From: a virus
IMG/VR virus record: IMGVR_UViG_3300013132_000058
Location: 1-57,556 of that record
Reading direction: 5' to 3' (one strand)
DNA length: 57,556 nucleotides
The translations under genes were made by a program, and so were the position numbers. Shown here one piece after another: positions 700-36,108 of this stretch (position 1 is the first letter of the stretch; the number at the start of each line of letters is the position of its first letter). Below the pieces are notes generated by a model. It had not been told where the DNA came from, made no database searches, and saw only the letters and a program-made list of their open reading frames with translations.

Positions 700-729
700 A
701 GCTAATGTGTCAACCAAAAATTATTGTAC

Positions 730-3618
730 ATGAAAGAATTAATTTCGCAAGAAGTTATTGAGAACTTTTTGTTCGGTTCTGACCCAGAAAAATACATAGT
801 TGGTGTCGAATACGATTATCAAAAAAATTTAATATATAAAATAATTCAGGACCCAGAAAAGGGTAAAATTATAAAACCTGATACGTTTACCCCATTCTTG
901 TGGTGTGGGGATTTATCTCAGTTAAATTTTTACGGGGGTTCTAAATCAGAACAAAAAAAATATATACAACATTATGGTATCGTAATTGAAAAATTAAATA
1001 CTGAGAACCACCCAAGATTAATTAACGGTCATAACTTTTTAATCAAAAGTATAAAAAGTTATTCATCACTAATAAGTTTTTTCAAAACAGGTGGTATCGA
1101 TATATGGAATGATAAATATAAACAATATTTTACTATTTTATCCCCCGTAGAACAATATTTAGTACAAAAGAAAAAAAGATTATTTAAAGGAATTGATGAT
1201 TATAATGGTGTTCATAGATTAGTATTCGACATTGAAACTACTGGTTTAAATCCAAAAGAGGATAATATAATCCTAATTGGCATAAAAGATAATCGAGGTT
1301 TTAAGAAAACGATACCAACATTTGGTGATGATGGTGAAAAAAATGCAATAATATCATTTTTTAATTATATAAAAGATATTAAACCAACAATTATTGGTGG
1401 TTATAATTCTGCTTCATTTGATTTTCCATTTATATTAAAAAGAGCAAAATATTTAGGATTAGATATTACTGAACTAACATCGGTATATGGTAATAGAGGT
1501 TTGAAAGAAAAAGAGGGGTTATTAAAGTTAGCAAATGAAATTGAACCTTATACTCAACATACTTTGTTTGGTTTTAATATAATTGATATTTCTCATTCTG
1601 TTAGAAGAGCACAAGCAATTAATTCGGAAATCAAATCTTGGAGTCTTAAATATATCACCAAATATCTTGAAAAAGAAAAACCTAATCGTGTATATGTTGA
1701 TGGTAAAGAAATATCAAATGTATATCTATCGAATGACAAATATTATGTAAATCCAAAAACAGGTAAGTATAGAAAGATTGGGGAAAAAGGGACTGAAAAT
1801 TTATTATCAAGATTTCCTAATGTTTATGAAATATGGGATGGTGAAAAAATAATAGAACAATATCTTGACGATGACCTTTATGAAACTATGATTGTGGACG
1901 AATCATTTAGTCAGTCTACATTTTTACTTTCAAAGTGGATTCCCACAACATATGAACGTATATCTACGATGGGAACTGCAACATTATGGAAAATCATAAT
2001 GTTATCTTGGTCATATGAAAATAATTTGGCAATACCGTGTAAAGTAGAAAAAAGGAAATTTACTGGTGGATTATCTCGTTTATTGAATGTTGGTTATTCT
2101 AAGAATGTTGTCAAGTTTGACTTTGCATCTCTGTATCCATCCATTCAACTTGTCTATGATATTTTTCCTGAATGTGATGTAATGGGTGTTCAGAAGTCCT
2201 TACTGAAATATTTTAGGAACATTCGTATTCAATATAAGAGACTTACAGGTGAATTAAAAGATAGTAATCCTGTTTTGTCTGAAATGTATGATAGAAAGCA
2301 GTTACCTATTAAAATATTCATTAACGGTTACTTTGGTTCATTATCAGCACCACAAGTATTTCCATGGGCAGAAATGGATAAAGCAGAATCAATCACTTGT
2401 ATCGGAAGACAGTGTCTTCGAATGATGATTATGTTTTATATGAAGAAAGGTTATAAACCATTAGTTATGGATACTGATGGTGTAAACTTTGAAACACCAG
2501 TAGATGTTGAATCTCATACATATGTTGGTATTGGAAATAATGAATTGGTCGAAAAAGGAAAGATATATAGTGGTGTTGAAGCAGATACAGCAGAATTCAA
2601 TGATTTGTTTATGAGGAATGAAATGGGTCTTGATTTGGATTATTTCTCTCCTTCGACAATCAATATTTCAAGAAAAAATTATATTATCAAATTAATTAAG
2701 AAAGGTAAAGAAAAGATTAAATTAACTGGTAATACTATCAAGTCAAAGAAACTTCAACAATATATTTCAGACTTTTTAGACGAAGGACTAAAACATTTAT
2801 TAAATGGTGATGGTGTTTCCTTTATAGAATTATATTATAGTTATATTGATAAAATTTTTAGTAAACAAATACCTTTATCTAAGATTGCAAATAAAAGTAG
2901 GATGAAACAATCCGTTGAATACTACAAAGACCACATTACCAAGAGAACTAAATCAGGGGTATTGATGTCAAGACAAGCACATATGGAACTTGTTATACAA
3001 AGTCAATATCCCGCTAATTTGGGTGAAACTATATACTATGTAAATAATGGTAAAAAGAAAACATCGGGGGATGTTCAAAAAATAACAAAAGCAACAAAGA
3101 AACAACAAGAAGAATATTATATTAATAATGGTAAACCAATTCCGTTTGACTATGTTGAAATCAATTGTTATATGATACCAGAAAAAGACATTACAAGTAA
3201 TCCTCAAATGACCGGTGATTATAATGTTCCGAGATACATTAGTATTTTTAATAAAAGAATTGAACCACTTCTTGTAGTATTTAAACCTGAGATTCGTGAT
3301 GATATATTGATTGAAGACCCAAAAGACAGGCAATATTTTACTAAAATACAATGTGACTTAGTAAATGGATATCCATTGAAAGAGGTCGGTCAAGATAAAT
3401 TTGATGAAGTTATGACTTTATCTGAAAGTGAAGTTAGATTTTGGAATGAAATGAAACAAGACCCATATTTTATGTACGTTGATAACAGTGTGAATATTAT
3501 TGACCAATATTGGGTCAACCATAACAGAAAAGTTGTGAACTATGAAGAAAAAAGTTCTATTGATAGTTATGAAGATATACAAGAAGATGATTCAAATATA
3601 TATTTTGCAATAGATTAA
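730..3618 (+). CDS. 43: DNA polymerase, family B, T4 gp43-like
   Basis: Replicative DNA polymerase with 3'-5' proofreading exonuclease, 962 aa against about 900 in T4. Exonuclease motif I is VFDIETTG (Asp167, Glu169), motif II lies in GGYNSASFDFPF, and motif III fits YLDDDLYET. Polymerase motif A is KFDFASLYPS (Asp464), motif B is KIFINGYFGS, and motif C is VMDTDGVNF (Asp581, Asp583), with Gly where T4-type enzymes usually have Ser. ATG 730 is preferred to an upstream in-frame TTG at 724. A hairpin lies in the leader. The 3' end shares three bases with the stop of the converging neck-type gene. It would work with gp32, gp41 and UvsX encoded further along; clamp and clamp loader are outside the window. 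Confidence 0.95.
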   Translation: MKELISQEVIENFLFGSDPEKYIVGVEYDYQKNLIYKIIQDPEKGKIIKPDTFTPFLWCGDLSQLNFYGGSKSEQKKYIQHYGIVIEKLNTENHPRLINGHNFLIKSIKSYSSLISFFKTGGIDIWNDKYKQYFTILSPVEQYLVQKKKRLFKGIDDYNGVHRLVFDIETTGLNPKEDNIILIGIKDNRGFKKTIPTFGDDGEKNAIISFFNYIKDIKPTIIGGYNSASFDFPFILKRAKYLGLDITELTSVYGNRGLKEKEGLLKLANEIEPYTQHTLFGFNIIDISHSVRRAQAINSEIKSWSLKYITKYLEKEKPNRVYVDGKEISNVYLSNDKYYVNPKTGKYRKIGEKGTENLLSRFPNVYEIWDGEKIIEQYLDDDLYETMIVDESFSQSTFLLSKWIPTTYERISTMGTATLWKIIMLSWSYENNLAIPCKVEKRKFTGGLSRLLNVGYSKNVVKFDFASLYPSIQLVYDIFPECDVMGVQKSLLKYFRNIRIQYKRLTGELKDSNPVLSEMYDRKQLPIKIFINGYFGSLSAPQVFPWAEMDKAESITCIGRQCLRMMIMFYMKKGYKPLVMDTDGVNFETPVDVESHTYVGIGNNELVEKGKIYSGVEADTAEFNDLFMRNEMGLDLDYFSPSTINISRKNYIIKLIKKGKEKIKLTGNTIKSKKLQQYISDFLDEGLKHLLNGDGVSFIELYYSYIDKIFSKQIPLSKIANKSRMKQSVEYYKDHITKRTKSGVLMSRQAHMELVIQSQYPANLGETIYYVNNGKKKTSGDVQKITKATKKQQEEYYINNGKPIPFDYVEINCYMIPEKDITSNPQMTGDYNVPRYISIFNKRIEPLLVVFKPEIRDDILIEDPKDRQYFTKIQCDLVNGYPLKEVGQDKFDEVMTLSESEVRFWNEMKQDPYFMYVDNSVNIIDQYWVNHNRKVVNYEEKSSIDSYEDIQEDDSNIYFAID

Positions 3619-4742
3619 ATCACTTGGATTGGATATATCATCGCTCTATATTTTAATGCAGCGTTCAAATATTCCGCTTCTGATTTTTTTCGCTCCAATA
3701 ACTTTTCGGGTCTTAATCTTGTTAATATTCCTTCAGTACCTATCAGTTCTTCAATTAATTTAGACCTTTCATCTTTATATTCAGTTTGTAAAGATGTATA
3801 ATCTAATTTTACGGTACTATCGGGTACTTGTAACTCTCCAGAAAATTTACCCCATATTCTTGATAAACCTTCTTTAGCATAAGTCATCAAATAACGTCTT
3901 ATCCAATTCTGAGCAGGTTTATTCAACTTAGACCAAGTTAAAATTTCAGTTGCAACATCTGATGGTAATTTAACAATATCTTTATTTGCTTCCAAACATT
4001 CATCACGATTATCTGTAGTTTCATAATACCAATACCATAATTGGTAGTTATGTTGTTGTATTGAACCAAAATCAAATTTACCACCTGGTGTATTATATAA
4101 GTGTACAAGTTTTGTTCCATTTGGTCCTGCGGTAATTCTATATGTCAATTCTCCACCAATTAATCTGTTTTTAATGTTTCTATCTTGCATCCTTAACAAT
4201 AAATCAAATGCTGGTAACATGAAATAAGAACCTGATGTACCTACTTGTGCAAAACCACCAACACCACCGAAACCAACACCCCCAAGACCACCAAAACCAC
4301 CCAAAAATGGGTCAACAATTGAATCAGTTAATTCTGCCCTTGTGAACCATAATAACTCATTTATTTCTCTTCCTGCGGGAATTATATAGGTTTGTGTATT
4401 TGCGGTTAATGTGATATAATCTTTTTTTAATTCCCATGGTCCACCAGCTTGTAAACCAACAATTTTAGAATATGCATATGAATATTGTGTTTCATAATCT
4501 AAACTTCTTGTTGTAAATGCTCTAGTCAATGAAACAGCGTCAACATCAACATTAACCAACGAAGACCATTGTGATTCAATCAACCAATTGTAAATGTATT
4601 GTTCGTAATCATTAATGCTTAATTCTAAGAATGAATCCATTTGTTCTTCTGTAAGTTCAATACCTCTTACAGGCATTCCTAATAAATGAAATATTTGAGT
4701 ATATAATTTTTCTTTATCTATTTGTGATATTACTGTTGACAT
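3615..4742 (-). CDS. Neck / head-tail connector-type virion protein
   Basis: 375 aa on the reverse strand. The C-terminal half contains LTWSKLNKPAQNWIRRY followed by a charged helical tail (KLIEELIGTE, PEKLLERKKSEAEYL). I associate this pattern with neck or connector proteins of T4-like environmental phages, but I cannot assign a T4 gene number. Residues about 148-170 form a Gly-rich stretch (GGFGGLGGVGFGGVGG), possibly a flexible loop. The start at 4742 has a TATTTAT motif 16 bases upstream on the same strand. The gene converges on DNA polymerase with overlapping stop codons. It is one of three reverse-strand genes here and lies near other neck/tail genes (6813-9760). Confidence 0.55.
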   Translation of the reverse strand: MSTVISQIDKEKLYTQIFHLLGMPVRGIELTEEQMDSFLELSINDYEQYIYNWLIESQWSSLVNVDVDAVSLTRAFTTRSLDYETQYSYAYSKIVGLQAGGPWELKKDYITLTANTQTYIIPAGREINELLWFTRAELTDSIVDPFLGGFGGLGGVGFGGVGGFAQVGTSGSYFMLPAFDLLLRMQDRNIKNRLIGGELTYRITAGPNGTKLVHLYNTPGGKFDFGSIQQHNYQLWYWYYETTDNRDECLEANKDIVKLPSDVATEILTWSKLNKPAQNWIRRYLMTYAKEGLSRIWGKFSGELQVPDSTVKLDYTSLQTEYKDERSKLIEELIGTEGILTRLRPEKLLERKKSEAEYLNAALKYRAMIYPIQVI

Positions 4743-4779
4743 AGTTTGACATATTACAATAAATATTTTATATTTAGAT

Positions 4780-5013
4780 ATGGATACAAGTGATGAAAAA
4801 ATGAAAGAAATTTTATTATTTTGTTATCAAAACAAAATAATATTCGAATTTAATAAGGAAGGTACAAAAAATAAATTTATTATTGATAAAGTAGATGAAA
4901 AAAACAGATTTGTGTTATCGATACCCAATCCAAAAGACAAAAAATTAGAAAAACTCATTGTTGGTGGATTTAAAGAACTAAAAAATTTGATTAATCAAAT
5001 CTCTACTAAATGA
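4780..5013 (+). CDS. Hypothetical protein, 77 aa
   Basis: A short, Lys/Glu-rich soluble protein beginning MDTSDEKMKEILLFC and ending LINQISTK. The composition suggests an alpha/beta fold with alternating charged and hydrophobic residues, and there is no membrane segment. It is divergent from the neck-type gene, with only 37 bases between the starts, and its last 36 bases overlap the end of the converging SNF2 helicase gene. No family is recognised. The overlap at the 3' end is a caution, but the start context (ATATTTAGAT before ATG) resembles other genes here. Confidence 0.5.
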   Translation: MDTSDEKMKEILLFCYQNKIIFEFNKEGTKNKFIIDKVDEKNRFVLSIPNPKDKKLEKLIVGGFKELKNLINQISTK

Positions 5014-6735
5014 TTCTGAATATTCACCATCGCCCATAACTTGGTCAATAATATTTTTCTTTTTTTGTAATATATTATAAATTATTCTTTCGATTGTATT
5101 ATCAAATATAGGATAGTAAACTAATACTGAATTTTTTTGTCCATACCTATATGCCCTATCTTCTGCTTGAGAATGGTGTGCTGGAACAAAAGATAAATCA
5201 TTCATTATTACAGTTTCTGCTGCTGTTAATGTGATACCAACACCTGCAGCAATTATATTACCTATGAATAATTTTGTTTTATCATTATTTTGAAATTTAT
5301 CGATACTTTCTTGTCTTTTATCTTTAGACATTCTACCATCAAGGGTTACAGAAATCTTTTTATATTTATCGTGTAATATTTCTAATGTATTTGTAAAATT
5401 TGTAAATACAATTATTTTTTTATCTTGTTCTAAAAACTTATCAATTAATTCACAGGTATATGGAATTTTTTCCATTGCAATTAATTGTCTAATTTTCATT
5501 AGTCTATTTAAGGTGACAGTAATACTTTCTTTATTTTTGTTTTCATTGGTAATTCTCATAAAATCTTCTAACTCTTCATCATAAAAAGTACTTTTTAATT
5601 CTAAAAATAACGGTGAAATAATTTTTTCTGGTAAATCTAATACATCTGTTTTTAATCTTCTAAGCACAATATTTTTAGTCAATTCTCTCAATTCATCCAA
5701 GTTAGAGGCACCACTTGTATTCCATATTTTTCTATTTCCAACCTTGAATTGATATCCTTTACAATATCTTTTTACATATGTTTGCCAATTTATTGCTAAA
5801 GGTGAGTTTACAATTTTAAGCAAGTTAAAATAGTTTATTGGTCTTGATGTCATAGGTGTACCCGATAACAACCATACTTTTGGTATTTCAGATAAAACAT
5901 CATTTAATAATTTTGTGCGGTTAGCTTGGGGATTACTGAGAAAATGACACTCATCCACTATAGCTAAATCAAAATTAGCATTTACTAATAATTTATAATC
6001 ATCACTATCTTCTGATTTTTCTGTTGTATGATAATTTTTTATGATATCATAATTGATAATGTAAAAATCAAAAGTTGAACCCCATTTTCTTCCTTCGACA
6101 ATTAATATTCTTCTATCAGTATAATTTTCAATTTCACGTTTCCAATTTATTTTAAGTGAAGCGGGGCAAACAATAAGTATTTTTTTTGCTTTTGATTCTA
6201 AAGATGATATCACCGCAATTGTGGTTTTTCCTAACCCTTGTTCATCTGCTAAAATATAACGGTCATTTGCTAAAAGTTTCTCTATTGCAATTTTTTGATG
6301 TTCAAGCGGTGGTCGATTAGAATATTTTGTGTAATCAATTTCTCTATCCAATTTTTTTTCTTCAACAACTATAGCTGTTTTTGGAACATAAAAACAATAG
6401 TTATTCTCTGATTCAATAATTTTTCCATATATGTGATATGCTTTATCAGTATCACACAATAATTTTTCACACCAAATACTTTCAGGAGGATTTACTAATT
6501 TTTTCTCATCCATGAGTTTATCTGCAAATGAAGAAGATAATTTTAAGAATTTTCTTGCAACTTTAGGGTTTATATTATGATATTTTAAAATATAGTCTGA
6601 TTGTGGTCTAGTGAGATTAATAATCTTTTTATTTAATAATCTTTTTTTCCATTCTAATATTTGATTATTAGAACCTTCATAATTTTCTAAAATATTTCTT
6701 GCTTTAATTTCAGGTGTTTCAATGTCCATATTCAT
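4978..6735 (-). CDS. SNF2-family DEAD/H helicase (ATP-dependent DNA translocase)
   Basis: 585-aa superfamily 2 helicase. The motifs appear in order: Q-like region PPLEHQKIAI, Walker A ADEQGLGKTT (about 163-172), DECH box (261-264), motif III LLSGTP (289-294), and motif VI QAEDRAYRYGQ in the C-terminal RecA lobe. The RYGQ ending is typical of SNF2/SMARCAL1-type annealing helicases rather than T4 UvsW, although the role in fork remodelling or recombination could be similar. About 140 N-terminal residues precede the helicase core. Two ATG codons (6735 and 6729) could start it. Overlapping ATAAATA copies (6766-6776) lie upstream as the reverse-strand TATTTAT motif. Confidence 0.88.
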   Translation of the reverse strand: MNMDIETPEIKARNILENYEGSNNQILEWKKRLLNKKIINLTRPQSDYILKYHNINPKVARKFLKLSSSFADKLMDEKKLVNPPESIWCEKLLCDTDKAYHIYGKIIESENNYCFYVPKTAIVVEEKKLDREIDYTKYSNRPPLEHQKIAIEKLLANDRYILADEQGLGKTTIAVISSLESKAKKILIVCPASLKINWKREIENYTDRRILIVEGRKWGSTFDFYIINYDIIKNYHTTEKSEDSDDYKLLVNANFDLAIVDECHFLSNPQANRTKLLNDVLSEIPKVWLLSGTPMTSRPINYFNLLKIVNSPLAINWQTYVKRYCKGYQFKVGNRKIWNTSGASNLDELRELTKNIVLRRLKTDVLDLPEKIISPLFLELKSTFYDEELEDFMRITNENKNKESITVTLNRLMKIRQLIAMEKIPYTCELIDKFLEQDKKIIVFTNFTNTLEILHDKYKKISVTLDGRMSKDKRQESIDKFQNNDKTKLFIGNIIAAGVGITLTAAETVIMNDLSFVPAHHSQAEDRAYRYGQKNSVLVYYPIFDNTIERIIYNILQKKKNIIDQVMGDGEYSESFSRDLINQIF

Positions 6736-9851: not shown

Positions 9852-12755
9852 ATGGCAACTTCAAACAGAGTTTTTGTATCCCCCGGTGTATATACATCAG
9901 AAAAAGATTTAACGTTTGTTGCACAAAGTATTGGTGTAACAACATTAGGAGTGGTAGGTGAAGCATTGAAAGGTCCTGCTTTTGAACCTATTTTGATTCG
10001 TGATTTCGACGAATTTAGGACATTTTTTGGTGGGACATCCATATTGAAAGATGGTGATGGTAATCCAAGATATGAATTATCATATGTTGCAAAATCATAT
10101 CTTCAAGAGTCAAATCAATTATTTGTAACAAGGATTTTAGGTCTCACAGGACATAAACCATATAGAACATATGGTATAACAACACTTGGTGGTTTAGAAC
10201 CTTCTCAAACAGGAACAACATCTATTGCTGCTTGGGAAAATAGTTTGTCGTCAAGTTCTACAGGTACAACCACTCCAACTGAATCAGGTATTACTGGTTC
10301 AACATTCTACTCATCATTGACGGGTAAAACATCGATTGATGGTACTTCAATGACAGAATACATTGTTCAGAATTTCAGTGGATTTACAACTGCCGACCAT
10401 AACAAATGGTTTGTAATTGGTTTAGTACCAACATCAGGAACTACAAGTTTAACTTCAACATTAGAGGAATTATCACCACTGACAGGATTGTACAATGATG
10501 ATAATACCAACGGTAAAGAATGGTATAATCAAATGTTTACCGATGCATTAACTGCAGTACATTCATATTTGTTTGTATATAATAGTGGAACGACATCATT
10601 TACAACTACAAGATATGTATATGATGCTTCTGTAAATACAGATTACGATGATATTGTGGTTGCTGCTTTAAGAAGTAGAGGTAGATATGTAAATGATGCA
10701 TTAATAAGAGAAGTAAGTGGTGCAACAAGTGTCACAGTATCTGACATTGATGACATTGGCTCAAATCCTCTTGGTGAATTTACATTAAGTGTCACAGGAG
10801 CTACTGGCGGAGAAAAAACGTTTACAACATCATTTGATAGTACATCTTCAAAATTCATTACTAAAGTTTTAGGTACTGATGTATTTGACAGGAATTATAG
10901 TGATTTTCCATTATATGTTCATGAAGTATATAACAATGAAATCGATAACTTATATGGTCTTGGACTCATTAGAGGTCTAAGTACGACCGTTACAACCAAT
11001 TTAGATGGTAATGACTTCTTAACTACTTGGAAGACATCATCGTCTCCTTATGTCGTTTCAGAAGTAAGGGGTAATAAAGTAAACAACTTATTCCAAGTTA
11101 TTACAATTTCAGATGGTGAATCTTCAAATTTCGATGTGAAGATTACAATACAAAACGTTGATTTAGAAAATAGTCAATTTGATGTATTAGTCAGAGACTA
11201 CAATGATACTGATGATAATATGGTTGTATTGGAGAGATATACAAGATGTTCATTAAACCCAACATTACCTGGTTATATTGCCAAAAAAATCGGTACATCT
11301 AATGGTGAATATGAATTGAAGTCAAAATACATCATGTTAAATATGGCTGATAATCATCCAACAGATGCAATTCCTGCTGGTTTCAAAGGTTATACAACAA
11401 ATGTTGATTTCGATACAAAAACTCTTGGTTCAATATCATATAAAACATCTTATTTATCTGCGGGTGATGTTGTTAAATATTTATCAAATGGTATACCCGT
11501 AATATCAAATGGTGACAAAGTAAGAAAAGTATCTCTAGGTTTTTCAACACAAGATGGATACAAATTTGATAGAGATTTACTGAAATATAAAGGTGTAAGT
11601 GCAACTGGAGTTACTCATGGATTCCATTTATCAACCAACGCATCTACAATCACTGGTAGTACATATGATGGTTATGAATTTAAAACAACTGAATATGATT
11701 TAGAAGGGACTAACAAAGGACTTTTAACAAGTATTGCTTACAGGAAATTCACATTTGTTACCGCTGGTGGTTTTGATGGATGGGACATTTATAGAGATGT
11801 AAGAACTTATTCGGATAGTTACATTTTTGGTAAATCACAATATGTATTAAATCATACAAATACTAATACTACAAATGGTGTGTTTGATAACACAACAGGT
11901 AATTCTGATTATTATTCATATCTACTAGGTATTCAAACATTTTCAAATCCAGAAGCGATTGACATCAATGTATTTGCGACTCCTGGTATCAATTTATCTG
12001 ACCATTCCTCTTTGACCCAACAATCAATCGACATGATTGAGACGGACAGAGCGGATTCACTCTATATCATCAATAGTAAAAATAGAAGTACTTCGGATGA
12101 TGTTATTGAAGACTTAGAAACAATTGATTTGGATTCTAATTATTCTGCAACATATTGGCCATGGATTCAAGTAAGAGATGAAGATAATGGAAGTCTTATC
12201 TATGTACCACCCACTTGTGAAGTAGTACGTAATATCGCACTTACTGATAACATTACTTATCCATGGTTTGCAGTAGCTGGTTATCAAAGAGGGTTGGTTA
12301 ATTCAGTCAAAGCATTTAAGAAGTTAACACTTGATGAAAGAGATGATTTGTATAATGCTAGAATCAATCCAATTGCAACCTTTGCAGATACTGGTACAAT
12401 CATTTGGGGTAACAAAACTCTACAGGTAAAAGAATCTGCGCTTGATAGAATTAACGTTAGAAGACTTCTTTTAAGAGCAAGAAAACTTATTTCGGCAGTT
12501 GCAATAAGATTGTTATTCGAACAAAATGATGAGCAAGTGAGAAATGAATTCCTAAGACTAGTCAATCCAATACTAGAATCAATCAAGAGAGAAAGAGGTT
12601 TATCTGAATTTAGAGTTACAGTATCGAATGATGTAGAAGACCTTGATGCAAATACATTGAGAGGTAAAATATACATTAAACCAATAAAATCGTTAGAATT
12701 TATTGATGTTGAATTTATTATTACTCCAACAGGAGCATCTTTTGAAAATATTTGA
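9852..12755 (+). CDS. 18: Contractile tail sheath protein, gp18-like
   Basis: 967 aa, about 300 longer than T4 gp18 (659 aa). The N terminus is typical of sheath proteins: VFVSPGVYTSEKDL, then GVVGEALKGPAFEP and IRDFDEFRTFFGG. The C-terminal core is also typical: IIWGNKTLQ, INVRRLLLRARKLI and FRVTVSNDVEDLDAN. The extra length lies in the middle (roughly residues 110-650), Thr/Ser/Gly-rich beta sequence where T4 gp18 carries its surface domains. The sheath contracts on host binding to drive the tube through the envelope. The stop is TGA, followed at once by a strong terminator, which shows TGA acts as stop in this genome. Confidence 0.93.
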   Translation: MATSNRVFVSPGVYTSEKDLTFVAQSIGVTTLGVVGEALKGPAFEPILIRDFDEFRTFFGGTSILKDGDGNPRYELSYVAKSYLQESNQLFVTRILGLTGHKPYRTYGITTLGGLEPSQTGTTSIAAWENSLSSSSTGTTTPTESGITGSTFYSSLTGKTSIDGTSMTEYIVQNFSGFTTADHNKWFVIGLVPTSGTTSLTSTLEELSPLTGLYNDDNTNGKEWYNQMFTDALTAVHSYLFVYNSGTTSFTTTRYVYDASVNTDYDDIVVAALRSRGRYVNDALIREVSGATSVTVSDIDDIGSNPLGEFTLSVTGATGGEKTFTTSFDSTSSKFITKVLGTDVFDRNYSDFPLYVHEVYNNEIDNLYGLGLIRGLSTTVTTNLDGNDFLTTWKTSSSPYVVSEVRGNKVNNLFQVITISDGESSNFDVKITIQNVDLENSQFDVLVRDYNDTDDNMVVLERYTRCSLNPTLPGYIAKKIGTSNGEYELKSKYIMLNMADNHPTDAIPAGFKGYTTNVDFDTKTLGSISYKTSYLSAGDVVKYLSNGIPVISNGDKVRKVSLGFSTQDGYKFDRDLLKYKGVSATGVTHGFHLSTNASTITGSTYDGYEFKTTEYDLEGTNKGLLTSIAYRKFTFVTAGGFDGWDIYRDVRTYSDSYIFGKSQYVLNHTNTNTTNGVFDNTTGNSDYYSYLLGIQTFSNPEAIDINVFATPGINLSDHSSLTQQSIDMIETDRADSLYIINSKNRSTSDDVIEDLETIDLDSNYSATYWPWIQVRDEDNGSLIYVPPTCEVVRNIALTDNITYPWFAVAGYQRGLVNSVKAFKKLTLDERDDLYNARINPIATFADTGTIIWGNKTLQVKESALDRINVRRLLLRARKLISAVAIRLLFEQNDEQVRNEFLRLVNPILESIKRERGLSEFRVTVSNDVEDLDANTLRGKIYIKPIKSLEFIDVEFIITPTGASFENI

Positions 12756-13636: not shown

Positions 13637-13898
13637 AAAAAAAATTACCCAGTATACTAGAACTAGTTTTTTAGTTATTTTCTATTATTATTTTTTTAAA
13701 TTTTATATATTAATTATTAGATATTACTTCTAGTTCTAAGTACTAGTATAGAAAAAATACGAATTTTTTCCGAGAAAATCAATAGGTTGAGACAAATTTT
13801 TTTCATAAACATAAATTTTTTAATACTTTCAATATTTTTTTTATTGTCTAAGTGTTTTTTTTTATAAGGTGATATTTATTTGTAAATATAATACTAAC
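13637..13898. other. AT-rich divergent intergenic region with split inverted repeat
   Basis: 262 bases without a gene, between a reverse-strand start (13621) and the gp19 start (13899). It is almost entirely A/T with many T runs. TATACTAGAACTAG (13653-13666) recurs as its inverse, interrupted by a few bases, in CTAGTTCTAAGTACTAGTATA (13730-13750), giving a possible large cruciform or regulator-binding pair. It probably holds divergent promoters. An origin role is only a guess. Confidence 0.4.
13873..13879 (+). promoter_or_regulatory. TATTTAT motif upstream of gp19
   Basis: GATATTTATTTGTAAATA ends 19 bases or fewer before the gp19 ATG at 13899. Candidate promoter element by recurrence. Confidence 0.38.
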
Positions 13899-14387
13899 AT
13901 GGCGGACTTACTAATGAAAATGCCCCTCCCTTACGAACCCAAAAGAAAAAATAGGTTTATATTAAGGTTTCCATCATCATTGGGGATAAATGAATGGTAT
14001 GTTTTTTCAACAAGCAGACCAACAGCAAAAATTAAATCAGTTGAAATACCTTTTCTTAATACATCAACATACGTTGCAGGTAGATTCGATTGGGAAGAAA
14101 TTAAAGTTCAATTTAAAGACCCCATAGGACCTTCTGCATCACAAGCATTAATGGAATGGTTTCGTTTACATGCGGAATCCGTGACAGGTAGAATGGGTTA
14201 CGCAGCAGGATACAAGAAAGATGTTGAACTTGAAATGCTCGACCCAACAGGTGTTGTAGTTGAAAAATGGATTCTTCAAGGATGTTTCTTAACTGGCTTG
14301 AATTTTGGTGACTTGAACTATAGCCAAGATGAATTAGCTACAATTGATGCATCTCTTAGAATGGACCGTTGTATACAAGTATACTAG
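13899..14387 (+). CDS. 19: Tail tube protein, gp19-like
   Basis: 162 aa, almost identical in length to T4 gp19 (163 aa). It begins MADLLMKMPLPYEPKRKNRF and has the tube-fold signatures KSVEIPFLNTSTYVAGRF, WEEIKVQFKDPIGPSAS, ALMEWFRLHAESVTGRMGYA, and the C-terminal DELATIDASLRMDRCIQVY. It polymerises into the inner tube of the contractile tail. ATG 13899 is chosen over an in-frame GTG at 13869, because the extra residues are encoded by the upstream TATTTAT element. A terminator follows at 14440. Confidence 0.93.
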   Translation: MADLLMKMPLPYEPKRKNRFILRFPSSLGINEWYVFSTSRPTAKIKSVEIPFLNTSTYVAGRFDWEEIKVQFKDPIGPSASQALMEWFRLHAESVTGRMGYAAGYKKDVELEMLDPTGVVVEKWILQGCFLTGLNFGDLNYSQDELATIDASLRMDRCIQVY

Positions 14388-14491: not shown

Positions 14492-14890
14492 ATGTCTACA
14501 ATTATGTATCATGCAATAGAACCATTAATGGAAAATAGATTTTTAATTGAATTAAATGGTAGTGACGTACCTTCATATACTTTCAGAGAATATGAGTTAT
14601 ATAATGAAGGTAATGATTTTATATTTAAAACAAAATTTTATGAAAATGTCAATTATACTTTTAATCCAAAAAGTATATTTGATATTACAAGTGTAAATAT
14701 TAAATATTTGGACCCCGTTGGTGACATTGTTAATGGTTTGACTTTTAAAGTTAAGGGTATAAATTTCAATAGAAAACAATCTTATTCAAACAGTGAATTA
14801 CAAATTAATGAAATAAAAATTCTTGTTGATGTAGAGTCTATGACACCGTATTATCATGCTAATAAAGAAGAAAATACTGAAAAAAAATAA
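14492..14890 (+). CDS. Tail-tube-like or tube-baseplate junction protein, 132 aa
   Basis: A small beta-type protein beginning MSTIMYHAIEPLMENRFLIEL. The opening pattern (ENRFLIELNGSDVPSYTFREYE) and the later KYLDPVGDIVNGLTFKV resemble the gp19 tube fold, so it may be a tube paralogue such as a tube initiator or adaptor. It sits between gp19 and the gp26-type gene, and its stop is 4 bases before the next ATG. The Lys/Glu-rich tail (NKEENTEKK) is probably disordered. Homology to the tube is inferred from short patterns only. Confidence 0.6.
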   Translation: MSTIMYHAIEPLMENRFLIELNGSDVPSYTFREYELYNEGNDFIFKTKFYENVNYTFNPKSIFDITSVNIKYLDPVGDIVNGLTFKVKGINFNRKQSYSNSELQINEIKILVDVESMTPYYHANKEENTEKK

Positions 14891-14893
14891 AAT

Positions 14894-15643
14894 ATGGAAG
14901 AATTAAGAGTTGACCCAACAATACAATATGATGTTGTTGAATTACCGAGTAAAGGAATTTATTATCAAAACAATAAAAAATCAGTTAGGGTTGCCTATTT
15001 GACCGCATCAGATGAAAATGTATTATCATCACCCAATATAATTAATACAAGTAATGTAATAGATGAATTATTGAAAAGAAAAATTTTAGATAAAGATATT
15101 AATTATGATGAAATTGTTGATAGAGATAAAGAAGCAATATTAATTTTTTTAAGAAATACTGCATTCGGTTCTGAATATAAAGTAAAATTAACTGACCCAG
15201 AAACTAATGAGTTTTTTTATGATAATATTGATTTAAGCACATTAAATTACAAGGATTTTAAATTGGAGGCAGATATAAATGGAGAATATAAATTTTTCAT
15301 GCCAAAATCAAAAATTGATATTACATTTAAATTTTTGACCAAAAAACAAGAAAAAGAACTTGAGAATATAAAAAATAATTGGAATGGTAATGATGTTGCA
15401 CCCTTGGTAACAAAAAGATTGGAAATGATGATAAAATCTGTTGCGGGTGTTAGGGACCAAATGAATATTAGAAATTTTGTATTGAATTTACCTATAGTAG
15501 ATTCTCAAGAGTTTAGGAAATTTGTTAATGAACATGAACCTGGACTTGATTTAAAAAGAAAAGCAAAAGCCCCATCAGGAGAAGAGGTCGATTATGTAAT
15601 CGGCTTTGGGGTTGAATTTTTTCGAGTTTTCTACGGATTATAA
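14894..15643 (+). CDS. Baseplate hub assembly chaperone, T4 gp26/gp51-type
   Basis: 249 aa, beginning MEELRVDPTIQYDVVELPSKG. The order LPSKGIYYQNNKKSVRVAYLTASDE, LLKRKI and FLRNTAFGSEY is typical of the gp26-type family, thought to act as chaperone between tape measure and hub in the way lambda G/GT does. It lies directly upstream of the tape measure, as tail chaperones do. The C terminus in this frame (VEFFRVFYGL) ends soon after a TTTTTTC run at 15617-15623. A +1 shift there joins a well-conserved-looking continuation ending at 15770 (total 291 aa). See the next entry. Confidence 0.72.
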   Translation: MEELRVDPTIQYDVVELPSKGIYYQNNKKSVRVAYLTASDENVLSSPNIINTSNVIDELLKRKILDKDINYDEIVDRDKEAILIFLRNTAFGSEYKVKLTDPETNEFFYDNIDLSTLNYKDFKLEADINGEYKFFMPKSKIDITFKFLTKKQEKELENIKNNWNGNDVAPLVTKRLEMMIKSVAGVRDQMNIRNFVLNLPIVDSQEFRKFVNEHEPGLDLKRKAKAPSGEEVDYVIGFGVEFFRVFYGL

Positions 15644-15770
15644 AAAAACACAATTATCAGAAATTTTCTTTCTGATAAGAAAGGGGTTCTCATATGGTGA
15701 TATCATATCTATGCCGATATTTGAAAGAAGGTGGTTTATCGAATACATCATGGAAATAGAAAATAAATAA
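15612..15770 (+). CDS. Out-of-frame continuation of the gp26-type chaperone (candidate +1 frameshift product)
   Basis: In the frame one base ahead of the gp26-type gene, an ORF opens after a stop at 15597-15599 and runs to TAA at 15768-15770. It has no ATG near its beginning, only TTG codons at 15606 and 15612. The peptide reads FFLIRKGFSYGDIISMPIFE then RRWFIEYIMEIENK. The 'fsy.dI..MPi.eRR' pattern resembles the C-terminal part of T4-like hub chaperones. Expression could be by slippage on TTTTTTC (15617-15623), by TTG start, or the split could be a one-base assembly error in the T run. It ends 16 bases before the tape-measure start. Confidence 0.6.
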   Translation: MNFFEFSTDYKKTQLSEIFFLIRKGFSYGDIISMPIFERRWFIEYIMEIENK

Positions 15771-15786: not shown

Positions 15787-18700
15787 ATGGCAAGGTCAAA
15801 AACACTACAGCAACATGCAATTAATTCTTCAAATTTTTCTGACTATCTTCGTAGAGTATCAAATGATGGTTATGATGTAAATGATAGAGGAGAAGCTGAC
15901 CAAATTTTTTCAGTTTGGGCACAAAGAGAAGGTCCATCTAGAGGTAATCAACCTAATAATAATGATACAAAATCATTTAGTAATATATTGAGTGCATTCC
16001 GAAGTAATGCACAATTCACATCTATTGAACAAGAAAATATCAAGGTTGATAAATTTGTGGAGTCATTCATGGGTATTATTAAACAACCAAAAAAAGTAAA
16101 TATTTTTACTCAGCCATCAGAAATTATAAAACAATTGATTCAATCTTCTTTTATAGAACTTGTAAATCAATTAGAAATATATTATAGAGAACAATCAGCA
16201 TTAAGAACCGCAATAAATAAAGATGCTGGTCTAAATTTTCAATTTGCAGAATCTTATAGAAAAACACTAACTGACGCAAGTCCAAAACTATTACAATATG
16301 GTATTAGTTTTAAAGATTTGGCAGAAACATCAGTTGCATTAGTAAAAAATACTGGTCGTTTTTATACACTTAATGAAACTTCAATTATTAGAGCTGCACA
16401 AGTTTCAGGTGCATATATGGATTCTATGTATGATATGACGACATTACTACCTGCATTTGAAAAAATTGGTATTGGAGCAACAGAAGCAATGGAAAGTATT
16501 GCAAGAGCGGGTAAGGATTCTATTTCTTTAGGTTTAAGGGCACAAAATGTCACCAAACAAGTCGGGGCAAACATTGACAAATTAAATCAATATGGATTTA
16601 AAAATGGTGTCGATGGTCTTACAAAAATGGTTCAAAAATCCATAGAATTTAGAATGTCGATGGAAGAAGTTTATAAAATTGCGGATAAGGTAATGTCTCC
16701 TGAAGGTGCAATAGAATTATCTGCGAATTTACAAGTTTTAGGTGGTGCCATCGGTGCGTTTAATGACCCTATGCAGTTGATGTATATGGCAACTAACAAT
16801 GTTGAAGGATTACAAGATGCATTAATTCAAGCATCTTCTAATTTGGCTACATACAATCAAGAACAACAACGTTTTGAGATTACAGGTGTCAACTTACGTT
16901 ATGCTAAACAAATGGCAGCAGACTTAGGTGTGACGTATAATGATTTAGCACAAGGTGCAATTGCAGCTGCAGAAAAAAGTTCAGCTGCATCTGATTTATT
17001 GAGAGCAGGATTAATATTGGATGATGAAGATAAAGAGTTTATTACCAATATTTCTAAGATGAAAGATGGAAAAATGGTAATTGACGTAAGTAATTCAACT
17101 AAATTACAAGAATTTTTTGGTGGAACTTCGGTTGCACTTGAAAATTTGGACCAAGCACAAGTTGAAATGATAAAACAATATAGAAGTCAATTAACTAAGA
17201 AAACAGAAGAAGAAATTATATTTAATCAATATACAAGTATAACAAATATTGAAAACTCAGTGAATTCAATTGCAGCTCGATTGAGAACTACTGCTGGTAG
17301 GGGTTTGGAAAATATTGTGATGGATAAGGGTATGCGAAAATTGATGGAAACGTTTGGAATGGAAATCGACGAAAATAGACCAGTAACCGAAGAAATTACC
17401 TCTAAATTGACTAGTCTTGTAAATAGTTTAAATGATAAACAACTTAGATATTATGAATTAGATAAAGAAGTTATAAATCGTTTTAAAAAAGAAATAGAAT
17501 CTTATGAAGATGCACTTGGATTAAAAAAAGAAAGCAGTACAGAAACCAAACCAGTAACTCCCCAAAAACAAAGTACACCCACTAAAATTGAACCTAAGAA
17601 AGAAGGCGAAAATGCATATGATAAATTTAAAGATAATATCTCAAATAACATTAGCATTATGACAGGTTTAATAAATAGTGCGTTTGGTAAAATATCAGAT
17701 GCATATAATAGTATGTCCGATAGACTTTTTTCGGTAAATAAGGATTCGAAGAATCACTTATCAAGTATAGACGGAAATATCAAAACGTTAGTTGATAAAT
17801 CAAATACAAATGTAACAGCTAAAGTTAATAGTAAAAATTCATCATCACCTATAGTTACAACAGAAAATGATGATTTGGCAAAATTAGTATCTTATTTATC
17901 ATATGAAGATTATACAATATATACATATTTAAAAGAAATAAGTAATTCATTTAAATCATATGCTGAAAATACATCATATAAAACATCAGAAATAAAAGAA
18001 ACAAAACCCAAAAAAGAAAAAGCAGAATTATTTTTTGATAAAGGATATAAAGCACCTGTACAAAAACGAAAAGTAAATGACGAAAATGTTGATAAAAAAA
18101 ATAATGAAGAAACAATAACAGGACCTTTTAAAAATGTTTCTAATATAGAATCTAATAGTGATAAAACTATTCAACCACCAAAAATTGAACAAAACCTATT
18201 AACTAAAAATATTACTGAAATTCTAAATAATATTAGTAGTTTGAATACTGAAGGAAATAGTAGTTTGAAATCATTATATGATTTATCTAAAGAATCAAAT
18301 AATATTTTATCCAATATACAAAAAAATACATTACCCAAAATTGATACCGATAAAACACTTTTAAGACAAGACACACTTGTAACTGAAAAAATAGTCAGTC
18401 AACCAAACACACCACAAACAGATTTAATATCTAATTTATTTCCAATTATACAAAATATAAGAGATGATATTTCAGATATTTTAAATTCTAATATACTTTC
18501 TGAAGGAAAACTATACGACATTAACAATCAGATGGATTTATCTATAAAAAATAATGAAAAAAATAATATAGTTATAAGTCAACCAAATGTAATTGAATAT
18601 AACAAAATAGGTAACCAAATTTTTACACAACTTGTAGATGTAATGTCAAAACCTAATCCGACTGAAAAAACAGATAAAACAATTACAGTAAGACATATAC

Positions 18701-18837
18701 ACGAACACCAACATATTGTAAAATCTCCGGCAATGGAAGATGCACTAGCAAGATATATTACTAGATTTCCGAATTTTTTTAGAGAGTCACAATCTATGGA
18801 TGAGAGAAGTTATACAAATACTGAGATAATAACATAA
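15787..18837 (+). CDS. Tail tape measure protein
   Basis: 1016 aa. Mostly helical, with a central Ala/Gly/Met-rich part (IGATEAMESIARAGKDSISL, SANLQVLGGAIGAFNDPMQL) like phage tape measures. From about residue 590 it is a long low-complexity Lys/Asn/Ser/Thr-rich section with helical segments, and it ends in a His-rich patch (RHIHEHQH) and a short helical tail. It follows the gp26-type chaperone, the usual chaperone/tape-measure order. It sets tail length; at about 0.15 nm per residue, 1016 residues predict a tail near 150 nm, against about 100 nm for T4 (gp29, 590 aa). That length is an inference and assumes the whole chain is extended. Confidence 0.8.
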   Translation: MARSKTLQQHAINSSNFSDYLRRVSNDGYDVNDRGEADQIFSVWAQREGPSRGNQPNNNDTKSFSNILSAFRSNAQFTSIEQENIKVDKFVESFMGIIKQPKKVNIFTQPSEIIKQLIQSSFIELVNQLEIYYREQSALRTAINKDAGLNFQFAESYRKTLTDASPKLLQYGISFKDLAETSVALVKNTGRFYTLNETSIIRAAQVSGAYMDSMYDMTTLLPAFEKIGIGATEAMESIARAGKDSISLGLRAQNVTKQVGANIDKLNQYGFKNGVDGLTKMVQKSIEFRMSMEEVYKIADKVMSPEGAIELSANLQVLGGAIGAFNDPMQLMYMATNNVEGLQDALIQASSNLATYNQEQQRFEITGVNLRYAKQMAADLGVTYNDLAQGAIAAAEKSSAASDLLRAGLILDDEDKEFITNISKMKDGKMVIDVSNSTKLQEFFGGTSVALENLDQAQVEMIKQYRSQLTKKTEEEIIFNQYTSITNIENSVNSIAARLRTTAGRGLENIVMDKGMRKLMETFGMEIDENRPVTEEITSKLTSLVNSLNDKQLRYYELDKEVINRFKKEIESYEDALGLKKESSTETKPVTPQKQSTPTKIEPKKEGENAYDKFKDNISNNISIMTGLINSAFGKISDAYNSMSDRLFSVNKDSKNHLSSIDGNIKTLVDKSNTNVTAKVNSKNSSSPIVTTENDDLAKLVSYLSYEDYTIYTYLKEISNSFKSYAENTSYKTSEIKETKPKKEKAELFFDKGYKAPVQKRKVNDENVDKKNNEETITGPFKNVSNIESNSDKTIQPPKIEQNLLTKNITEILNNISSLNTEGNSSLKSLYDLSKESNNILSNIQKNTLPKIDTDKTLLRQDTLVTEKIVSQPNTPQTDLISNLFPIIQNIRDDISDILNSNILSEGKLYDINNQMDLSIKNNEKNNIVISQPNVIEYNKIGNQIFTQLVDVMSKPNPTEKTDKTITVRHIHEHQHIVKSPAMEDALARYITRFPNFFRESQSMDERSYTNTEIIT

Positions 18838-31064: not shown

Positions 31065-31901
31065 ATGTCAACATTAGATTCAGTACTTGCACAGTACGAA
31101 AAAAACAAACAAGCCACAAGTGGCAACAAAGTTTCTCAGGACGAGAGAATGAAAAAGTATTTCACCACAATTTTACCTAAAGGTTCTAAAGGTGAAGAAA
31201 GAAGAATTAGGATTTTACCGACAAAAGACGGTTCATCACCTTTTGTTGAGGTAAAATTCCACGAAATTCAAGTAGGGGGTCAATGGTTAAAACTGTATGA
31301 CCCAGCACAAGAAGGTAAACGTTCACCCCTAAATGAAGTTTACGAAGGTCTAATGATGGAGGGAGATGCACAAAGTAAAGAAGATGCAAAAACATATCGC
31401 TCACGTAAATTTTACATTGTAAAAGTTATTGATAGAGATAATGAACAGGATGGTGTAAAATTTTGGAGATTTAAGCATAATGCAAAAGGTGATGGTGTTT
31501 TTGATAAAATCTTTCCTATATTCAAAAACAAGGGAAATATTACCGATATTAAAAATGGTAGAGATTTGATTCTTTCATTAACCTTAGCAAAATCTGGTAA
31601 TGGTAAAGAGTATACTGTAATCAATTCAGTCATTCCCGAAGACCCTGGACCTTTACATACTGATAAAGAAACATCTAAAATTTGGGAGAATGACGAACTT
31701 GTATGGTCTGATGTTTATTCCAAGAAAGGAGAAGATTACCTTGAGATGGTTGCAAGGGGGGAAGAACCGAGATGGGATTCTGTCACCAATAAATGGGTAA
31801 GTAATGCTATGGAAGAATCTGAAATTACAAGCAACAAATCGAAAAAGGTTGTTGTCGACCCTCAAATTGATGATAGTGTTGATGATGATTTACCTTTCTA
31901 A
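31065..31901 (+). CDS. 32: Single-stranded DNA-binding protein, gp32-like, zinc-free, with SSB-like tail
   Basis: 278 aa. The OB-fold part reads RRIRILPTKDGSSPFVEVKF and GGQWLKLYDPAQEGKRSP, typical of phage gp32. T4 gp32 has one His and three Cys binding zinc in this area; this protein contains no Cys at all, so the zinc site is lost. The C terminus is acidic and ends DDSVDDDLPF, close to the DDDIPF tip of bacterial SSB rather than the T4 tail. It coats ssDNA in replication and recombination and is expected to contact UvsX, polymerase and helicase. It is preceded by a terminator and followed by a long hairpin at 31918-31965. Confidence 0.9.
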   Translation: MSTLDSVLAQYEKNKQATSGNKVSQDERMKKYFTTILPKGSKGEERRIRILPTKDGSSPFVEVKFHEIQVGGQWLKLYDPAQEGKRSPLNEVYEGLMMEGDAQSKEDAKTYRSRKFYIVKVIDRDNEQDGVKFWRFKHNAKGDGVFDKIFPIFKNKGNITDIKNGRDLILSLTLAKSGNGKEYTVINSVIPEDPGPLHTDKETSKIWENDELVWSDVYSKKGEDYLEMVARGEEPRWDSVTNKWVSNAMEESEITSNKSKKVVVDPQIDDSVDDDLPF

Positions 31902-31917
31902 TTGAATCAAAAATAGT

Positions 31918-31965
31918 GAACCCCTTGGGTTGGTCAGATTGGTCAAAGACCAATCCTTGGGGTTC
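31918..31965 (+). promoter_or_regulatory. Long hairpin between gene 32 and uvsX with two possible folds
   Basis: GAACCCC / GGGGTTC (7 bp), a TT/TT internal loop and GGGTTGGTC / GACCAATCC (9 bp, one G-U) form a 16-bp symmetrical hairpin with a 12-base loop. A second copy of TTGGTC inside the loop allows a competing stem, GATTGGTC / GACCAATC, over a 3-base loop. There is no T run after it, so it is not a classic terminator. It may be a processing, stability or attenuation element. Confidence 0.6.
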
Positions 31966-31985
31966 CTTTACCAAAAATTTGTAGT

Positions 31986-32990
31986 ATGGCAATCAAGAAA
32001 AAAAGTTTTGATTATATTTCTAAGTTTTCGAGTAGTACAAAATATAAGAATGAAGATTTTTATTATTGTGGGGAAGCATTTAATCAAGCGTGTGGTCTTC
32101 CCGGTCCAGTAATGGGAAACATTAATATGTTTCTTGGTCATACCAACTCTTCAAAGACAACAGCAATGATTTTGTCTGCAGTAGATGCACAAAAAAAAGG
32201 AGATTTACCTATTCTTATTATTACTGAACGTAAATGGAAATGGGAACATGCACTTGAACTTGGATTTCAGGCAGAAAAAAATGAAGATGGAGAATGGGTT
32301 GGAGATTTTATTTTCAATGACTCATTTGATTATATTGAACAAGCAACAGATTTTGTGAATGAAATATTGAATTTACACGAAAAAGGTGAAATCCCAAGAA
32401 ATATTTTGATTTGTTGGGATTCAATCGGTTCTATTCCATGTAAATTGACATATGACGGTAAAGGTGGTAAACAACATAACGCATCAGTACTTTCTGATAA
32501 AATCGGTATGGGTATTCATGCAAGGATTACAAAATCAAAAAAAGAAGATTACCCAACAAAAGAATCTCCTTTCTATGTGACGATGGTTGTAGTAAACCAA
32601 CCATGGGTAGAACTACCCGATAATCCTTTTGGACAACCTGAGATTAAAGCAAAAGGTGGAGAAGCATTATGGTTAGCATCCGCACTTGTATTTTTATTTG
32701 GAAATCAAAAGAAATCAGGTATTAATCACATAGATGCAGTTAAAGGAGGTAGAAAAGTTTCATATGCGGTGAGAACTAAAGTATCAATATTAAAGAATCA
32801 CGTAAATGGATTGGGTTATAAAGATGGTAAGCTTATTGTTGTACATAATGGTTATATTCCTGATACGAAAGAGGCGTTAGAAGAATACAAAAAACAATAT
32901 TCAGAATTTTGGTCTCAAAAACTTGGTGGCGTTTTTACATTATCTGAATCAGTAACAACTGAGGATGATGAAGATGAATCCGATTATTAA
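31986..32990 (+). CDS. uvsX: UvsX-type RecA recombinase
   Basis: 334 aa (T4 UvsX 391 aa). Walker A is GHTNSSKTT (about residues 50-58) and Walker B is ILICWDSIG with the catalytic Asp. The region LPDNPFGQPEIKAKGGEALWL and RKVSYAVRTKVSILKN fits the DNA-binding and C-terminal RecA core. The C terminus is acidic (TTEDDEDESDY). It forms filaments on ssDNA and drives strand exchange and recombination-dependent replication with gp32. The start ATG at 31986 lies 20 bases after the hairpin. The next gene begins 16 bases after its stop. Confidence 0.92.
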   Translation: MAIKKKSFDYISKFSSSTKYKNEDFYYCGEAFNQACGLPGPVMGNINMFLGHTNSSKTTAMILSAVDAQKKGDLPILIITERKWKWEHALELGFQAEKNEDGEWVGDFIFNDSFDYIEQATDFVNEILNLHEKGEIPRNILICWDSIGSIPCKLTYDGKGGKQHNASVLSDKIGMGIHARITKSKKEDYPTKESPFYVTMVVVNQPWVELPDNPFGQPEIKAKGGEALWLASALVFLFGNQKKSGINHIDAVKGGRKVSYAVRTKVSILKNHVNGLGYKDGKLIVVHNGYIPDTKEALEEYKKQYSEFWSQKLGGVFTLSESVTTEDDEDESDY

Positions 32991-33006
32991 TCTGTAATAA
33001 ACTTTA

Positions 33007-34029: not shown

Positions 34030-34264
34030 AATTGAATTACTGAACTCAGAAGGACCAATTTTAGAATTGTATAAAAAATCAACTTTTATGCTAAGATTTA
34101 AAGAGTCTGGTGAGTTGATGGAAATTAATGAAAAAACATTAAGACAATTTTTAGATGGTAAATTGACACTAATCACAGAAGATTCAAAAGGATGGAACAT
34201 GAATGATTTCTCCGATGGAATGAAACAATCAAAAGAAAAAATTAATCAATTTATAAACAGTTAA
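34019..34264 (+). CDS. Small hypothetical protein, 81 aa
   Basis: ATG 34019 lies inside the end of the FEN nuclease gene (11-base overlap), suggesting translational coupling. The product is charged and likely helical (TFMLRFKESGELMEINEKTL, RQFLDGKLTL) and ends in a short helical tail (GMKQSKEKINQFINS). There is no Cys or membrane segment. No family is recognised. Its place among replication genes suggests an accessory role, but nothing in the sequence shows it. Confidence 0.6.
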   Translation: MKSKIELLNSEGPILELYKKSTFMLRFKESGELMEINEKTLRQFLDGKLTLITEDSKGWNMNDFSDGMKQSKEKINQFINS

Positions 34265-34266
34265 AT

Positions 34267-34707: not shown

Positions 34708-34716
34708 AAAAAAAAG

Positions 34717-36093: not shown

Positions 36094-36108
36094 TATAAAA
36101 AAAGTAAA

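What the first reader, a model, noticed from the sequence alone, without database searches (positions are those of the whole stretch)
14894..15770. Candidate programmed +1 frameshift in the gp26/gp51-type hub chaperone
Seen: the chaperone frame ends VEFFRVFYGL at 15643, while the frame one base ahead is open from 15600 to 15770 and encodes FFLIRKGFSYGDIISMPIFE then RRWFIEYIMEIENK, with no ATG at its beginning. A TTTTTTC run (15617-15623) sits where a Phe-tRNA could slip +1. Known: tail chaperones upstream of tape measures are often made as two products by frameshifting (lambda G/GT). Inference: this T4-like phage makes a short 249-aa and a long 291-aa chaperone. I am not aware of a frameshift being described for the T4 gp26 type, so this may be new.
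Basis: partly seen in the sequence, partly recalled or inferred. Interest (0 to 1): 0.78.

Follow-up and report, generated by a model that had tools for sequence, protein, structure and literature searches.

The report
Plus-one frameshift in phage tail chaperone
A T4-related virus of bacteria appears to make a short and a long version of one tail-building helper protein by having ribosomes skip one base at a conserved spot, probably nudged by an RNA hairpin just upstream; the two-version trick is known, but this forward skip and its hairpin look new for this protein family.

Summary
It is neither an error nor chance. In 213 distinct relatives' junctions the same break recurs, always with the C-terminal piece in the +1 frame, at a conserved site TTT-YTT-(CGN|TGG)-CCY. 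The post-stop piece has dN/dS 0.14 in +1 (1.5 and 1.0 in the other frames) and no stops. Fused product: 291 aa. The protein is the T4 gp26/gp51-type tail assembly chaperone (PF12322, phrog_150): zero frame = gp26-like short form, fusion = gp51-like long form. What looks new is the +1 direction at a sense codon and, in the window's subgroup, a conserved RNA hairpin ending 4 nt before the slip site, where engineered upstream hairpins stimulate +1 shifting. Frameshifting is inferred from comparative sequence evidence; nothing was measured. Verdict: real, conserved, new variant of a known kind.

The parts
14894..15643 (+). Zero-frame ORF, 249 aa: short chaperone form (TAC-N, T4 gp26-like)
   Evidence: PF12322 E=2.5e-6 above its cut-off; phrog_150 E=1.2e-10, profile 15-234 of 282; 43 close relatives at 61-73% identity
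15624..15770 (+). +1-frame extension (48 aa plus stop): C-terminal domain of the long form (TAC-C, T4 gp51 C-terminus-like)
   Evidence: dN/dS 0.14 in +1 versus 1.51/1.04 over type I relatives; HHalign 93.2% to the -1-frame extensions of cyanophages and others, 80.3% to the gp51 C-terminus; predicted all-helical
15617..15625 (+). Slip site TTT TTT CGA (P-site TTT re-pairs with TTC, A-site CGA)
   Evidence: Conserved in 213 distinct junctions as TTT/CTT/TTC, TTT/CTT/CTA, then TGG 122, CGN 85; TTT TTT CGN occurs once in 15,946 codons of the window's genes
15569..15612 (+). Upstream RNA hairpin: outer stem 15569-15574 (GCCCCA) with 15607-15612 (TGGGGT); inner stem about 15585-15593 with 15598-15606; bulge 15575-15584 (TCAGGAGAAG)
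   Evidence: -18.4 kcal/mol, z -2.1; outer stem 96.1% paired over 72 sequences, covariation score above all 500 shuffles and all slid versions; amino-acid-preserving shuffles mean z -2.10 over type I, most extreme of 11 windows
15641..15643 (+). Zero-frame stop TAA ending the short form
   Evidence: a zero-frame stop follows the slip site in every distinct junction
15787..18837 (+). Downstream ORF, 1016 aa: probable tape measure protein
   Evidence: Position and length only; no PHROGs or Pfam match; the annotated relatives immuto and LIS04 have a tape measure gene here
13869..14387 (+). Tail tube protein (T4 gp19-like), a likely partner of the chaperone
   Evidence: phrog_4542 E=3.5e-26
9852..12755 (+). 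Tail sheath protein: the virus has a contractile tail
   Evidence: phrog_23 E=2.3e-55

Best explanation
The locus is a tail assembly chaperone gene of the T4 gp26/gp51 family decoded by programmed +1 ribosomal frameshifting. Most ribosomes stop at 15641 and give the 249-aa short form. A fraction pause with peptidyl-tRNA-Phe on TTT (15620-15622) and a rare Arg codon CGA in the A site; the tRNA re-pairs one base forward on TTC (15621-15623) and translation continues to 15767, giving a 291-aa long form with a helical C-terminal domain. A hairpin (15569-15612) refolding behind the ribosome probably favours the forward slip. By analogy with lambda G/GT, many short copies coat the tape measure protein and few long copies recruit tail tube subunits. 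Shown here by comparative sequence evidence: the conserved two-frame gene, the slip site, selection on the +1 frame, family membership, hairpin conservation. Inferred: that shifting occurs, its efficiency, the stimulating role of the hairpin, and chaperone function.
For: Same break in 213 distinct junctions, +1 in all of them. +1 frame under purifying selection with no stops. Unbiased DNA-motif scan 120/120. PF12322/phrog_150 match of the zero frame; the fusion extends the phrog_150 match to column 275, where gp51 reaches 280 and gp26 ends at 235. HHalign links +1 extension, -1 extension and gp51 C-terminus. One family member per contig in 13 large relatives (116-317 kb) and the window, so no separate gp51 was found. 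Arg codon at the site CGN in 85/85 versus 10% elsewhere in the same genes; GGG 79/85 versus 11%; GCC and ACC of the 5' arm also rare elsewhere. Hairpin. Upstream hairpins stimulate +1 shifting at CUU UGA in a 70S system (PMC6321510). C-terminal extension predicted helical, fusion pLDDT 89.7.
Against: No expression data. Stem covariation is modest: the silent Pro/Phe pair is not significant (Fisher p=0.16), the inner stem slides in register between clades, and part of a deep branch (L104-L107, L115) breaks the outer stem. The TGG group has only weak upstream structure (mean z -0.92). The tape measure ORF is identified by position only. Related sequences are not independent, so counts overstate the number of events.
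Confidence: 0.9

Rival explanations
1. A sequencing, assembly or recent indel error in a homopolymer split one 291-aa gene.
For: T6 run at 15617-15622; the T4 paralogue gp51 carries the extension in a single frame.
Against: The same +1 break occurs in 213 distinct junctions from many independent assemblies and in isolate genomes; about 40 sites lack a T6 run (CTT, CTA or TTC at the site).
Confidence: 0.01
2. The downstream frame is a separate small gene with its own start, coupled to the chaperone's stop, as in Ackermannviridae-like relatives.
For: Dickeya phage RC-2014 (L308), Pseudomonas phage Cygsa01 (L056) and Vibrio phage K369 (L305) have the extension in the -1 frame with a TAATG-type overlap; the window has a TTG at 15606.
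Against: 53 of 213 relatives have no ATG, GTG or TTG between the upstream +1 stop and extension residue 8, only 67 have an ATG there, and the first ATG inside the extension is most often near residue 29-32, mid-domain. The slip codons and the rare CGN codon would have no reason to be conserved.
Confidence: 0.04
3. The shift is -2 ribosomal slippage, which reaches the same frame with one extra Phe.
For: TTT TTT allows P-site re-pairing two bases back in most sites, and -2 is known for phage Mu (own knowledge).
Against: Sites with TTC TTT CGN (L047, L073), TTT CTT TGG (30) and TTT CTA (4) do not offer -2 re-pairing but do offer +1.
Confidence: 0.04
4. Transcriptional slippage on the T run makes a subset of messages one base shorter.
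For: Run of six T.
Against: Bacterial slippage usually needs longer runs (own knowledge); about 40 of 213 conserved sites have no such run.
Confidence: 0.01

Closest known systems
T4-like tail assembly chaperones (Vladimirov, Gautam & Davidson 2022; T4 gp26 and gp51)
   Same: Same protein family (PF12322, phrog_150); short and long forms; the C-terminal extension is homologous to that of gp51
   Different: T4 encodes the two forms as separate genes, and relatives with poly-T sites are cited as -1; here a single gene shifts +1 at a sense codon. I could not read the paper itself, so I cannot exclude that it mentions +1 cases
Lambda gpG/gpGT tail assembly chaperone
   Same: Short form plus frameshifted long form encoded next to the tape measure gene; proposed same job
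   Different: Lambda shifts -1 (PMC5009743); no sequence homology was tested here
Phage +1 chaperone shifts: Bacillus phage Moonbeam (PMC4299906), haloarchaeal HSTV-2 (PMC5009743)
   Same: +1 direction in a tail chaperone gene
   Different: Different phages; shift sites and any hairpin were not compared
E. coli prfB (RF2) +1 frameshift, CUU UGA
   Same: P-site tRNA re-pairs one base forward next to a slow A-site codon; the immuto group even has CTT TGG
   Different: Sense codon instead of a stop in the A site; an upstream hairpin instead of a Shine-Dalgarno element
Engineered upstream hairpins that stimulate +1 shifting in 70S (PMC6321510)
   Same: Stable hairpin just 5' of a +1 site
   Different: Those are designed constructs; this is a natural, conserved one (role untested)
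0305phi8-36 gp143/gp144 two-gene tail chaperone (PMC2147016)
   Same: Shows that short and long forms can come from paralogous genes, as in T4
   Different: No frameshift there

Membership tests
T4 gp26/gp51 chaperone family (PF12322 / phrog_150) | Zero-frame protein matches the curated family model above its cut-off | tested here: met
   PF12322 27.8 bits versus cut-off 24.5; phrog_150 E=1.2e-10; BFVD structural hits with names are mostly gp26-type baseplate hub proteins
T4 gp26/gp51 chaperone family (PF12322 / phrog_150) | Long form carries a C-terminal extension homologous to gp51's | tested here: met
   Fusion reaches phrog_150 column 275 of 282; HHalign +1 extension versus gp51 C-terminus 80.3%, E=1.4e-5, stronger through the -1 extensions (93.2% and 97.3%)
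Programmed +1 ribosomal frameshift | P-site codon can re-pair one base forward, next to a rare or slow A-site codon | tested here: met
   TTT to TTC; CGN is 91 of 575 Arg codons in the window's genes and 10% elsewhere in the type I genes, but 85/85 at the site
Programmed +1 ribosomal frameshift | Shifted product is made | not testable with these tools
   Needs proteomics or a reporter assay
[quoted passage not shown]
   Order tube, unknown ORF, chaperone, large ORF in the window; annotated tape measure in the same place in immuto and LIS04; the window's own tape measure is assigned by position only
Tail assembly chaperone with frameshift (lambda G/GT type) | Long form is minor, binds tail tube; both absent from virions | not testable with these tools
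   Biochemistry needed
Classical -1 frameshift heptamer (X XXY YYZ) | Heptamer in phase and extension in the -1 frame | tested here: not met
   Extension is in +1; in phase the window's site reads A TTT TTT (G TTT TTT in most type I relatives)
[quoted passage not shown]
   A site is CGA; the upstream GGGG is one arm of a hairpin, with the partner arm also biased to matching rare codons and GCACC/GGTGC in L102 and L103
5' hairpin-stimulated +1 frameshift | Conserved hairpin ending just upstream of the slip site | tested here: met
   Type I only; no signal in seven -1 relatives (mean z -0.02)
5' hairpin-stimulated +1 frameshift | Hairpin raises shift efficiency | not testable with these tools
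   Stem-breaking and compensating variants in a reporter needed

The most novel reading that the evidence does not exclude
A large clade of uncultivated T4-related phages uses a natural 5' mRNA hairpin, refolding behind the ribosome, to drive +1 frameshifting at a sense codon in the tail chaperone gene, while homologous chaperones in related phages use -1 shifting, a coupled small gene, or a duplicated gene. That would be a natural, deeply conserved case of the upstream-hairpin mechanism so far seen in engineered constructs.
Probability: 0.6. Interest if true: 0.7.

Novelty: new variant of a known kind. Interest (0 to 1): 0.55.

Why it matters
The family shows four apparent decoding solutions for the same two chaperone forms (+1 shift, -1 shift, coupled small gene, duplicated gene), which lets one ask how a recoding direction flips in evolution. 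A natural hairpin directly 5' of a +1 site would make testable what a 2016 review left as 'perhaps' (PMC5009743): whether mRNA structure 5' of a site stimulates +1 shifting. Practically, hundreds of environmental phage genomes probably have their chaperone's C-terminal part unannotated or called a separate gene.

Tried and rejected
Genome-contig scan found no relatives. tblastn with the fused protein did not span the junction in any record, because the two parts lie in different frames. Downstream RNA structure: no conserved signal (mean z -0.26 and -0.41). The GGGG upstream was first read as a Shine-Dalgarno element and rejected once its partner arm was found. Aligning the short extension ORFs together with full proteins misplaced them, so the structure was predicted from the fusion plus zero-frame rows only. 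Foldseek against PDB gave no meaningful match. No tRNA gene in the window. The 2022 Virology paper is not held.

Full report
Observation. The fused product is 291 aa.

Not an error, not chance. A first scan gave 43 IMG/VR relatives at 61-73% identity; every one whose contig continues past the stop keeps the same layout. Three more scans and isolate phages brought this to 282 loci with a readable junction, 276 with the +1 frame open across the stop; five of the rest are contig ends that are also +1, and one (L049, an uncultured huge phage) has the piece in the -1 frame with its own overlapping ATG. In type I (CGN) relatives the region past the zero-frame stop has 0 stops in 3786 +1 codons against 378 and 327 in the other frames, and dN/dS 0.14 against 1.51 and 1.04 (pairs are not independent).

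Slip site. Over 213 distinct junctions: codon 1 TTT 208, CTT 3, TTC 2; codon 2 TTT 178, CTT 31, CTA 4; next codon TGG 122, CGN 85, others 6; then CCT 198, CCC 9. Every site offers a TTT followed by T or C for +1 re-pairing. The TTC TTT, CTT and CTA sites speak against -2 slippage and against transcriptional slippage. Arg is always CGN at the site (85/85) though CGN is 10% of Arg codons elsewhere in these genes. In the window TTT TTT CGN occurs once in 15,946 codons.

Identity. The zero frame matches PF12322 and phrog_150. T4 gp26 (208 aa) and gp51 (249 aa) both match the same models: gp26 ends at phrog_150 column 235, gp51 runs to 280, the window's zero frame ends at 234 and its fusion runs to 275. 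HHalign probabilities: gp26 versus gp51 99.5%; +1 extensions versus -1 extensions of cyanophages and others 93.2%; those versus gp51 C-terminus 97.3%; +1 extensions versus gp51 directly 80.3%. So gp26 looks like the short form and gp51 like the long form. In cyanophages and the KVP40-like phage VH7D the extension follows in the -1 frame at T TTT TTC; in L056, L305 and L308 it has a TAATG overlap; in T4 and relatives gp26 ends at this spot with no extension. Thirteen large relatives and the window hold one family member each.

Prior art. The gp26/gp51 assignment is published: Vladimirov, Gautam & Davidson 2022 (Virology 566:9-15). I could not read it; PMC10885494 says of it that some T4-like phages carry one short and one long gene instead of frameshifting, and PMC12846349 cites it for poly-T -1 signals in T4-like chaperone genes. 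From memory, its abstract also says that frameshifting is conserved in several T4-like groups. [quoted passage not shown] +1 chaperone shifts are reported for Moonbeam (PMC4299906) and proposed for HSTV-2 (PMC5009743).

Upstream hairpin. Downstream sequence shows no conserved structure. Upstream, type I relatives share a hairpin ending 4 nt before the first TTT: outer stem 15569-15574 with 15607-15612 and an inner stem (window -18.4 kcal/mol). With amino-acid-preserving codon shuffles the 60 nt before the site have mean z -2.10 in type I, against -0.60 for the next window. The outer stem is 96.1% paired over 72 sequences; the covariation score of outer plus inner stem exceeds all 500 shuffles and all slid versions, with GCACC/GGTGC replacing GCCCC/GGGGT in L102 and L103. 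Both arms use codons rare elsewhere in the gene (GCC 7%, ACC 15%, GGG 12%). Limits: the silent Pro/Phe pair is not significant (p=0.16), the inner stem slides in register, part of one deep branch breaks the outer stem, and the TGG group is weak (-0.92). Seven -1 relatives show none (-0.02). Upstream hairpins stimulate +1 shifting at CUU UGA in a 70S system (PMC6321510), and a 2016 review thought 5' structure might perhaps do so (PMC5009743).

Structure. The fusion is predicted at mean pLDDT 89.7 with an all-helical C-terminal extension (the extension itself scores about 68-84). Viral structure hits that carry names are mostly gp26-type proteins; none of use in PDB.

Conclusion. A conserved +1 frameshift making short and long tail chaperones is the best reading (0.9). 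It is a new variant of a known kind; the hairpin's role is the open, testable part.

Noticed in passing
L053:3199-3390, L303:2232-2402, L306 after 2331: In cyanophages the small ORF annotated 'baseplate hub assembly catalyst' is the -1-frame C-terminal piece of the gp26 chaperone, often left unannotated (e.g. L304, L306); sites read T TTT TTC.
   Followed up: partly
window 15575-15584 and the same place in type I relatives: The hairpin's bulge has strongly preferred silent choices (TCA 72/84, GGA 80/84 against 36% and 30% elsewhere), spelling CAGGAG; its role is unexplained.
   Followed up: partly
L049 (LR756511) about 4740-4935: A huge phage's chaperone has a different C-terminus and the extension in the -1 frame overlapping at TAATG.
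   Followed up: no
window 14492-14890: Unknown 132-aa ORF between the tail tube and chaperone genes, no convincing family match.
   Followed up: no
window 724-6735 and 31065-38376: DNA polymerase, helicase, SSB, UvsX-like recombinase, exonuclease, DnaB-like helicase and ribonucleotide reductase genes beside tail genes, which fits a T4-related myovirus.
   Followed up: partly
L102-L107, L115: A deep branch of type I often uses GGT instead of GGG at the hairpin's 3' arm; L102 and L103 compensate, others lose part of the stem.
   Followed up: partly
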